Assembly (NCBI GenBank): GCA_040388535.1
Contig: JAZKBR010000001.1
Span: 544,821-608,820, forward strand
Direction of reading: 5' to 3'
From: Gemmatimonadota bacterium
Lineage (GTDB): Bacteria > Gemmatimonadota > Gemmatimonadetes > Gemmatimonadales > GWC2-71-9
DNA length: 64,000 nucleotides
The position numbers and the translations under genes were made by a program. Positions 42,910 through 47,274 of the stretch are shown here, piece by piece (position 1 is the stretch's first letter; every line of letters starts with the position of its first letter). Below the pieces are notes generated by a model. It did not search any database. It had not been told where the DNA came from and was given only the letters and a program-made list of their open reading frames with translations.

Positions 42910-45900
42910 CTAGCGATTTCGCCGTGCGCGTGCTTCCCCACCAACCGCTCCCGCCGGCTCCTTCAGCATCAATCCCTGCAGCTTCGACGCAGCCTCGGCC
43001 GAGAAGCGCACGTGGGCCCGCTCAACCCAGGCGAGCAGGTCGCCAAGATCGTAACCACCGTTGCGGTTGCCGTCGCGATCGAAGATAGTGCGCTGATCTT
43101 CCGTCAGGCCGCCCGCGCGGAAGAGTTCTTCCACGGCAATCCCCGGCTCGGGTGAGGGCACCGCCACGATCTCAAGGGTATCGACAAAGGTGCTCTTGAT
43201 CGACGGGTCGCGCTGCAGCCTGATCTCGATGGAATCCACGTGGACGCCAGGCTGCAGCGTGGTGGGCAGGCGTTCCCAGATCATCCGGCCGTTGAGTTCG
43301 CCGGTGAGCGTCATCAGGCGGAACCGGCTCGAGTTGGTCGAAGCCATCCAGAGTGACGACGCTCCGTCGACAAGCGCCCCCTCAACCACCGCGGTGTCGA
43401 GCGTCGACTCCACCAGGCTCGCCGAGGTGCCGGCCGCCGTGAGGACCCGGAACTTCTTCCCCTTCGGCGTGACGGCGATCGACGAAGGCGCAGCGGCGAT
43501 GCTGAGCGTGTCGACAATCATTGCTGTCGCGCCGCCGGCTACCACGCGGATGGTGTCGACGTAGGTCCCGACGCCGAGCGCAGCGCTGTTCCGGCTCCAG
43601 CGTACCCGACCGCTGCCGGTGCCACTGGCCGTCGTGAGCGTCGCCCAGCTCGCGGTACGAGCCGCGCTCCAGGTCGTCGTGCCGTTACCCGTGCCAGTGA
43701 GCGTCACCGTCGCGCTGTCGGTCGGCGTGCTGCCACCCTGGGTGATGTTGTTCCGGCGACCGGCGGGCGAGAGCGCAACGGCAATCGGGATGACCGGCAC
43801 CGAGGTGATGCGCACTGTGTCATAGACCATCGCAGGCGTCGCCACACCGGCCGCCGTGACCGTGATGGTGTCGACATAGGTGCCCACGGCCAGCGCCGAC
43901 ACGTTCCGGCTCCACGCGACGGTACCACTGCCGGTCCCCGCGGCCGTCGTCAGCGTGGTCCAGCTCTTCCGCCTGGTTGCGCTCCACGTCGTGGTGGCAG
44001 CGTTAGTACCCGCGAGCGTGACGGTGGCCTGATCGCCTGCTGCCGCCGCACCCTGCGTGACCGAGACCATTCGCGCCGCGGGTGACAGCGCAAGGGTCAC
44101 CGGGACCGGCGCGCTGGTGATCCGCAACGTGTCATACACCGTGACCGGGCTTGCCACACCGACGGCAGTGACCGTGATGGTGTCGACGTAAGTGCCGGCA
44201 GTGAGTCCGGTTGCATTCCGGCTCCACGCCACCGTGCCACTGCCGGTGCCGGCAGCCGTCGTGAGCGTGGTCCAGCTCTTCCGCTTGCTCGCCGACCACG
44301 TTGTGGTCGAGCTGTTGTCACCCGCGAGCGTGATGGCGGCCTGGTCGACCGGCGCGCTGGTACCCTGTACTACCGAGACGGTACGTGAGGTGGGTGCCAC
44401 GGCGAGAGTCAGTGGCACCGGTGCAGTGGTCACGCGCAACGTGTCGTAGACATAGCCCGGCGCAGCGACTCCGACGGCGACCACCGTGATGGTGTCGACG
44501 TAGACGCCGGCGGCGAGTCCGCTGGCATTGCGGGTCCAGAACATGTTTCCGCTGCCAGTGCCGCTGGGATTCGTGAGCGTGGTCCAGCTCTTCCGCCTGG
44601 TCGCGCTCCAGTTGGTCGACGCGCTGTTGTCGCCGCTGAGCACGACACCAGAGTGATCGCCGGACGCGCTGCCGCCAACCTGGACCGTGGTGCTCCGCGA
44701 GCCTGGCGTCATCACCATCGTCACCGGAACTGCTGCTGCCGAGACGCGCAGCGTGTCGTAGAGCACGACCGGCTGCGCGACACCGACGGCCGAAACGGTG
44801 AGGGTATCGACATAGGTACCCGCGGTGAGGCCAGTGGCGTTGCGGCTCCAGCTCACGACTCCGGAGCCGGTTGCGCTGCTGTTCGTGAGCGTGGTCCAGC
44901 TCTTCCGCTTGGTGGCGCTCCACTGCGTCGCCGCACTGTTATCGCCAGCGACGGTGACAGCGGCCTGATCCGATGGCGCACTGCCACCGGCGACGACCGA
45001 CACATTGCGCGACGTGGGAGCGATGGCAAGGGTGAGCGGCACTGGCGCTGCGGTCACCCGCAAGGTGTCATACACCACACTCGCCGTGGCGACGCCGACG
45101 GCAGTCACAGTGATCGTATCGACATAGGTTCCCACGGTGAGCCCGGTGGCATTGCGGCTCCACGCCACGGTGCCACTACCGGTGCCACTCCCGCCGGTCA
45201 GTGTGGTCCAGCTCTTCCGCTTCGCCGCACTCCAGATCGTGGTGAGCGCATTGTCCCCGAGCAGGGTGACACTCGCCTGATCGATCGGTGCGTTGCCGCC
45301 CTGCTGCACTGCGGCATTGCGCGAGGGCGGCGACACGGCCAGCGTGACCGGTACCGCAGCGGCGGTGACCCGCAACGTGTCATAGAGGACCTGCGGCGAA
45401 CCGACGGCGCCCGCGGCCGACACGGTGAGGGTGTCGACGTAGGTGCCGACAGCAAGCCCAGTGGCGTTGCGCGTCCAGGCGAGCGTACCGCTGCCCGTGC
45501 CGCTGCCCGTCGTGAAGGTGGTCCAGCTCTTCCGCTTGGTCGCGCTCCACGCCGTGCTGCTGCCGTTGCTGCCGCTCAGCGTGATGCTGGCCTGATCGCT
45601 CGGCGCACCGTTCCCCTGCTGTACCGCGACGTTCCGCGACGTCGGGGCAATGGCGATCGTGAGCGGCAGCGGAGCTGCCGTCACGCGCAGGGTGTCGTAA
45701 ATGGTGCCAGGCGATCCGGTCGCGCCCGGGGCCGTGATGCTGATCGTGTCGACGTAGGTACCGACAGCAAGCCCGGTTGCATTGCGGCTCCAGGAAACGG
45801 TGCCCGATCCGGTGCCACTCGCCGCGGTCAGTGTCGTCCAGCTCTTCCGCCTCGTAGCGGTCCAGCTGGTGCTGGAGCTGTTGGTGCCGGACAGCGTCAC

Positions 45901-47274: not shown

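What the first reader, a model, noticed from the sequence alone, without database searches (positions are those of the whole stretch)
42910..47274. Subtilisin with eight BACON-like modules, a dockerin-like calcium loop and a basic tail
The unit W-S-A-x-K-R-K-S-W-T-T-L...SGTGSGTVAWSRN is repeated eight times and is also near-identical at DNA level, so copy number may vary by recombination. The C-terminal DRDGNRNGGYDLGD loop followed by ARARRNR is neither PEP-CTERM nor a known type IX tail. It could dock the protease on a partner or the surface.
Basis: partly seen in the sequence, partly recalled or inferred. Interest (0 to 1): 0.66.

Follow-up and report, generated by a model that had tools for sequence, protein, structure and literature searches.

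The report
Docking tail and lipoprotein anchor pair
This secreted protease ends in a small calcium-loop domain that recurs across the bacterial phylum Gemmatimonadota almost always beside the gene for a small lipoprotein with a predicted cohesin fold, so it is probably the plug of an unrecognised plug-and-socket (dockerin-cohesin-like) system that holds secreted enzymes on the cell.

Summary
The finding is real and leads further than its coordinates. The gene (42910-47274, minus) encodes a subtilisin-like protease, eight BACON-like modules (plus a divergent ninth) and a C-terminal EF-hand-like domain. The repeats match Pfam BACON_2 but are not near-identical at DNA level (mean 60%). The tail is not unique: a profile finds it in 88 of 200 Gemmatimonadota genomes, 1-5 copies each, at the C-terminus of secreted proteins, mostly peptidases. 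No Pfam family covers it. Its neighbour explains it: a small lipoprotein, in this window at 50774-51214 minus. Tail and lipoprotein co-occur almost perfectly (86 genomes both, 3 one only, 111 neither), and 133 of 143 tails have the lipoprotein on the same strand within 2.5 kb, usually with an ATGA stop/start overlap; in some families they share one reading frame. The lipoprotein is predicted with high confidence (pLDDT 94) to fold like cohesin, the dockerin receptor; cohesins fill the top structural matches. A natural single-chain form gives a pTM that implies the tail docks on it. Best explanation: a one-loop dockerin/cohesin-lipoprotein anchor, undetected by PF00404/PF00963. Binding, calcium and surface location are untested.

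The parts
42910..47274 (-). Gene of the secreted subtilisin-like protease (1454 aa), P0001
47185..47274 (-). Signal peptide region (MQFSFASKTRLVVRLGTLALLALPGISQAQ)
   Evidence: read from sequence; coordinates
46030..46773 (-). Peptidase_S8 catalytic domain with Asp (DSGGDATHPDL), His (HGTHVAG) and Ser (GTSMATPH) motifs
43489..45990 (-). Eight BACON_2-like modules of about 104 aa
43162..43497 (-). Ninth, divergent module
42976..43152 (-). Dockerin-like C-terminal domain: helix, helix, calcium-type loop, helix
   Evidence: family defined; helices from the model of a relative
43039..43080 (-). EF-hand-like loop DRDGNRNGGYDLGD
42913..42933 (-). Basic C-terminus ARARRNR (tendency in the family, not a conserved motif)
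50774..51214 (-). Small lipoprotein (146 aa, lipobox L-A-A-C29), predicted cohesin fold; proposed receptor/anchor of the tail

Best explanation
The tail is a minimal, one-loop dockerin-like domain and the lipoprotein at 50774-51214 (minus) is a cohesin-like receptor. The protease is exported by its signal peptide; the lipoprotein is exported, lipidated at Cys29 and kept in a membrane, probably the outer one. The tail, folded around one calcium ion, then binds the lipoprotein and tethers the protease non-covalently to the cell envelope, with the BACON-like array as a spacer that may also bind glycans or protein. Shown here by computation: the tail family, the lipoprotein family, their linkage, co-occurrence and shared reading frames, and the predicted cohesin fold. 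Inferred: physical binding, calcium dependence, membrane and leaflet, and which of this genome's two lipoproteins binds which of its two tails.
For: (1) Tail profile in 88 of 200 Gemmatimonadota genomes, lipoprotein profile in 87 of the same 200; 86 have both, Fisher p about 3e-53, copy numbers equal in 76 of 89 genomes, Spearman 0.92. (2) Genome-wide, 133 of 143 tails have the lipoprotein on the same strand within 2.5 kb and 139 within 12 kb; none has one on the opposite strand within 12 kb. (3) Among 131 distinct tails in fetched loci, 83 have it directly downstream, 13 upstream, 15 in the same open frame; in 68 of the 83 the tail gene's TGA is part of ATGA. (4) In the finding's genus (G000, G001, G005, G006, G009) the subtilase and the lipoprotein stay linked on one strand; for G000, G001, G006 and G009 the flanking genes are syntenic. 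(5) Lipoprotein model pLDDT 94.3; Foldseek's top three rows are cohesins and the first 31 rows by VIA-align 2 are cohesins (best Z 8.8, rmsd 2.8 over 98). The lipoprotein was chosen by linkage and noted as a candidate receptor before any structure was computed. (6) Model of a natural tail+lipoprotein chain: tail pLDDT 89-98, pTM 0.73 despite a disordered linker of about 65 residues; my estimate is about 0.51-0.55 if the tail were not placed and about 0.70 if it were. (7) The loop's D27, N31 and D40 (profile positions) are invariant and G30, N33, G34, D37 and G39 are at least 94% conserved in 131 tails. (8) Hosts are diverse: M6, S8 and other peptidases, a beta-propeller-like protein and others.
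Against: No binding, calcium or localisation data. Neither half matches PF00404 or PF00963, and the tail lacks the duplicated loop of standard dockerins. The fold match is moderate: Foldseek E 0.017 at best, VIA Z 8.8, near the 7-8 that models without clear relatives often reach. No coordinates or PAE were returned, so docking is inferred from pTM only, on a class-level relative and without a negative control. In the finding's own genus the subtilase and lipoprotein are 2-10 kb apart, here 3.5 kb with opposite-strand genes between them. The first tail profile used seeds chosen by a motif, which favours conservation. Co-inheritance in an operon alone would also give co-occurrence.
Confidence: 0.78

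Rival explanations
1. The lipoprotein is an inhibitor, immunity-type protein or folding helper of the partner enzyme, and the tail is its recognition site rather than an anchor.
For: Most hosts are peptidases (23 of 49 M6, 5 S8) and the gene order enzyme then lipoprotein with ATGA coupling would suit a helper or inhibitor.
Against: The tail also sits on proteins with no detectable peptidase domain, such as beta-propeller-like and repeat-only proteins; the constant partner of the lipoprotein is the tail, not the enzyme class; a cohesin-like fold on a lipid anchor suits tethering.
Confidence: 0.13
2. The tail is a secretion or sorting signal, read by a transporter or processing protease, and the neighbouring lipoprotein is part of that machinery.
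For: C-terminal position and basic ends recall C-terminal sorting tags; in fused forms an Arg-rich stretch and hydrophobic segments follow the tail.
Against: One lipoprotein per tail, in equal copy number, is unlike a shared machine; no PEP-CTERM, type IX or related model matches; the unfused tails have no C-terminal membrane segment.
Confidence: 0.07
3. Tail and lipoprotein do not bind each other: ordinary operon co-inheritance of two surface proteins, with a beta-sandwich that only resembles cohesin.
For: Any conserved operon shows co-occurrence; synteny in the genus is conserved for other genes too.
Against: Linkage survives different gene orders, different host enzymes and fusion; the fold is that of the dockerin receptor; fused-chain pTM.
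Confidence: 0.08

Closest known systems
Cellulosomal cohesin-dockerin pairs (types I-III)
   Same: Small C-terminal calcium-loop helical domain on secreted enzymes; beta-sandwich receptor with cohesin fold.
   Different: One loop instead of two, with a shifted first ligand; receptor is a single small lipoprotein encoded next to its one client, not a multi-cohesin scaffoldin; hosts are mostly peptidases; below detection by PF00404 and PF00963.
Non-cellulosomal cohesins (e.g. Archaeoglobus fulgidus 2xdh; Clostridium perfringens 2jh2, 2vo8, 2w1n)
   Same: Among the best structural matches of the lipoprotein models.
   Different: Those are modules of other proteins in other phyla; identity about 9-14%; here a lipoprotein paired with a dockerin-like tail in an operon.
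Truncated dockerins of Ruminococcus flavefaciens FD-1, group 2 (PMC2930009)
   Same: C-terminal dockerins with only one calcium-binding repeat, proposed there to bind cohesin in a single mode.
   Different: There the first repeat is the one identified; here the order helix, helix, loop, helix would fit loss of the first loop; different phylum, no sequence comparison made.
GC-type dockerin (NCBIfam NF041540)
   Same: Weak match of one tail, E 0.017.
   Different: 24 of 25 tails do not match it at E up to 1.
PEP-CTERM, MYXO-CTERM, GlyGly-CTERM and type IX tails
   Same: C-terminal module shared by unrelated secreted proteins of one lineage.
   Different: A folded domain without membrane segment in the unfused forms; no model match; about one dedicated partner gene per tail.

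Membership tests
Dockerin (type I, PF00404) | Match to the family profile | tested here: not met
   No PF00404 hit for P0001 or for 25 tails at E up to 1; family search rings in 3 of 41 relatives and not in this genome
Dockerin (type I, PF00404) | Two duplicated EF-hand-like calcium loops | tested here: not met
   One loop only in all tails read
Dockerin (type I, PF00404) | Loop ligands D-x-N/D-x-D/N-G-x-x-N/D-x-x-D | tested here: inconclusive
   Positions 3, 5, 6, 9 and 12 match (N, N, G, D, D); position 1 is variable, an invariant D lies two residues before it
Dockerin (type I, PF00404) | Calcium-dependent binding to a cohesin | not testable with these tools
   Only inferred from pTM of a natural fused chain
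Cohesin | Jelly-roll-like beta-sandwich of the cohesin type | tested here: met
   By predicted model: pLDDT 94.3; first 31 VIA-align rows are cohesins, Z up to 8.8, rmsd 2.8 over 98 residues; Foldseek best E 0.017. Eight strands assigned by DSSP
Cohesin | Match to PF00963 or to cohesin sequences in the PDB | tested here: not met
   No Pfam match at E up to 10; profile search of PDB sequences finds no cohesin
BACON_2 (PF19190) | Profile match above the gathering score | tested here: met
   46.9 bits against 25
BACON domain | Carbohydrate binding | not testable with these tools
Subtilase (Peptidase_S8) | Profile match and Asp/His/Ser catalytic motifs | tested here: met
   E 2.4e-49; DSGGDATHPDL, HGTHVAG, GTSMATPH
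PEP-CTERM or type IX secretion tail | NCBIfam model match | tested here: not met
   None listed at E up to 1 for P0001
Bacterial lipoprotein | Signal peptide with lipobox ending in Cys | tested here: met
   VLAAC with Cys29 in the window protein, and similar N-termini in relatives

The most novel reading that the evidence does not exclude
Gemmatimonadota use a phylum-specific, one-client-one-receptor cohesin-dockerin system to display secreted enzymes, and in some families both halves are made as one polyprotein: enzyme, tail, weakly hydrophobic segment, Arg-rich loop, second hydrophobic segment with a lipobox-like Cys, cohesin domain. Cutting of the linker would release a pre-matched plug and lipid-anchored socket.
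Probability: 0.3. Interest if true: 0.85.

Novelty: new variant of a known kind. Interest (0 to 1): 0.72.

Why it matters
Cohesin-dockerin binding is among the strongest protein-protein interactions known and is best known from cellulosomes of anaerobic plant-fibre degraders. A compact version, one short calcium-loop tag plus one small lipoprotein, in a mostly uncultured soil and water phylum and mostly on proteases, would mean this way of holding enzymes on the cell is more widespread than sequence families show. It proposes a function for two unannotated families, predicts which secreted enzymes stay on the cell, and offers a small tag and receptor pair for protein display.

Tried and rejected
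Tail as a Pfam, NCBIfam or PDB-sequence family: only weak, scattered matches. Lipoprotein in Pfam or PDB by sequence: none. Foldseek's other high rows for the lipoprotein (YcnI, DUF4466, chitin- and cellulose-binding modules, Als adhesins) fall below the cohesins in VIA-align. 'Near-identical repeats' rejected. Literature: no paper on Gemmatimonadota cohesins or such tails found in the held library; the key survey of non-cellulosomal cohesins and dockerins (Peer et al. 2009, cited in PMC2930009) is not held, so it cannot be ruled out that it mentions a relative. A mirror-tree or coupling analysis was left out: operon co-inheritance would confound it and about 130 pairs are few.

Full report
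What was reported. The finding names a subtilisin with eight BACON-like modules, a dockerin-like loop and a basic C-terminus at 42910-47274. The minus-strand ORF is there; with ATG at 47274 it encodes 1454 aa. Pfam finds Peptidase_S8 (residues 168-415, E 2.4e-49) and BACON_2 above its gathering score. The subtilase motifs with Asp, His and Ser are intact. The window lies in a 3.7-Mb genome of 98% completeness, and named relatives are Gemmatimonadota.

Repeats. Eight clear modules of about 104 aa are followed by a ninth, divergent one. They are not near-identical: mean DNA identity 60%, maximum 73%, protein 55%; Tandem Repeats Finder gives 68% over 5.5 copies. Congeneric orthologs carry from 5 to 14 modules, and one of them (G009) has copies up to 96% alike, so module gain and loss between species is real; it is not recent in this window.

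The tail is a family. A 54-residue query finds a second copy in this genome, at the C-terminus of a peptidase-like protein on contig C4, and copies in 34 of the 61 genomes searched. All lie near a C-terminus, 19-45 residues from the stop in the first set. A profile from 25 of them finds 88 of 200 genomes of the phylum, 1-5 copies each. A scan of 84,980 species found relatives only in records of Gemmatimonadota and allied names, apart from one titled Gammaproteobacteria from the same sample series (RHO1) as a Palauibacter record, which I take for a naming or binning error. Consensus: LL-G-x-x-x-L-s-x-x-Q-x-x-x-L-D-x-x-G-N-x-N-G-x-[YF]-D-x-G-D-[FL]-x-A-W. In 131 distinct tails D27, N31 and D40 (profile numbering) are invariant and G30, N33, G34, D37 and G39 at least 94% conserved. 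Read as a dockerin loop, positions 3, 5, 6, 9 and 12 agree; position 1 is free and an invariant Asp sits two residues earlier, which would be a 14-residue variant. The seeds were picked by a motif, so conservation is somewhat overstated. No Pfam model covers it, and in NCBIfam one of 25 tails touches 'GC-type dockerin' at E 0.017.

The partner. In class-level relatives the tail is followed, in the same frame, by an Arg-rich stretch, a hydrophobic segment, a Cys and a domain of about 110 aa. A homologous domain is a separate lipoprotein gene in this window, 50774-51214 minus. At that point I wrote down the idea that it is the receptor of the tail, before any fold was computed. The tests: in the same 200 genomes, 86 have both families, 2 only the tail, 1 only the lipoprotein, 111 neither; copy numbers agree in 76 of 89. 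Genome-wide, 110 of 143 tails have the lipoprotein on the same strand within 0.8 kb, 133 within 2.5 kb, 139 within 12 kb, and none on the opposite strand. In fetched loci 83 of 131 tails have it directly downstream, 13 upstream, 15 fused; 20 show none, many of these at contig ends or in the finding's genus. Of the 83, 68 tail genes end in ATGA, the usual mark of translational coupling. In the finding's genus the two genes are farther apart, about 3.5 kb here and 2-10 kb elsewhere, on one strand, within a locus whose neighbours are also conserved.

The fold. AlphaFold2 on the window lipoprotein with 74 aligned sequences gives pLDDT 94.3 and pTM 0.81, a beta-sandwich of eight strands with a short helix. 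Foldseek's first three rows are cohesins (best E 0.017, Archaeoglobus 2xdh), and the 31 best rows of VIA-align 2 are cohesins, Z 8.8 to 6.5, about 98 residues at 2.6-3.7 A. Z near 8 is not conclusive alone; it counts because the list is nearly all one family and because that family is the receptor of dockerins, the idea already written down. A natural fused chain from a class-level relative (L193:5974-6645), with 103 aligned rows, gave pLDDT 84.6 and pTM 0.73: tail helices 3-10, 18-27 and 36-47, a linker of about 65 disordered residues, and the sandwich. From the definition of pTM I estimate 0.51-0.55 if the tail were not placed on the sandwich and about 0.70 if it were. This is indirect: no PAE or coordinates were returned, and no mismatched control could be run. 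The cohesin part of this second model matches cohesins too.

Hosts of the tail. Of 49 tail proteins, 23 match M6, 5 S8 and 2 M10, with Ig-like, InlB-like, BACON_2 and PPC domains; others are M11/M12-like, beta-propeller-like, or show only spacer domains. A partner that follows the tail over such hosts is more likely an anchor than a specific inhibitor.

Mechanism. Most likely the protease is exported, its tail folds around calcium and plugs into the cohesin-like lipoprotein, which holds it on the cell; the BACON array is a long spacer that may bind glycans. The residue after Cys29 is Gly, which by the E. coli rule would allow outer-membrane sorting; this is knowledge from elsewhere, not a test. 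A secretin match below the type II cut-off exists in this genome, so the route across the outer membrane stays open.

Verdict. What it works like: a cohesin-dockerin anchor. Membership: cohesin by predicted fold but not by sequence; dockerin in layout and most of the loop pattern but not by profile or by loop duplication, so it is filed as a new variant. Single-repeat C-terminal dockerins have been noted before in Ruminococcus flavefaciens (PMC2930009). I found no report for this phylum in the held library, which is incomplete.

Noticed in passing
L160, L162, L166, L167, L170, L178, L180, L184, L187-L189, L193, L195, L207, L219, L112: Tail and cohesin-like domain lie in one open frame; the linker shows a weakly hydrophobic segment, 11-18 Lys/Arg, then a hydrophobic segment ending in a lipobox-like W-S/G-C, and several linkers have no Met. 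This suggests a true polyprotein that crosses the membrane twice.
   Followed up: partly
L065 (G000:C4:457000-460000): The same genome has a second pair: an M6-like peptidase with the tail and its own lipoprotein overlapping by ATGA.
   Followed up: yes
47920-48675 +: Small secreted protein with a PEP-CTERM-like end (VPEPATMSLLAMGLAGMAGAGVRRRKQK), divergent from the subtilase gene, in a region with glycosyltransferase and polysaccharide deacetylase-like genes.
   Followed up: no
L249 (G000:C2:1048918-1049136): One protein of this genome passes the cut-off for the type IX sorting tail TIGR04183 (27.6 bits against 23).
   Followed up: no
40785-42870 +: Two adjacent acyltransferase-like (FemAB/GNAT type, by eye) genes lie before the subtilase here; the syntenic loci of G001 and G009 seem to lack them.
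   Followed up: no
L235, L236 (G040): A relative has standard PF00963 cohesin and PF00404 dockerin matches on other contigs, so ordinary cohesin-dockerin parts may coexist with the variant in some genomes.
   Followed up: no
L193 (JAPPHB010000060.1): A record titled Gammaproteobacteria carries a fused tail-cohesin gene typical of Gemmatimonadota; probably misbinned or misnamed.
   Followed up: no
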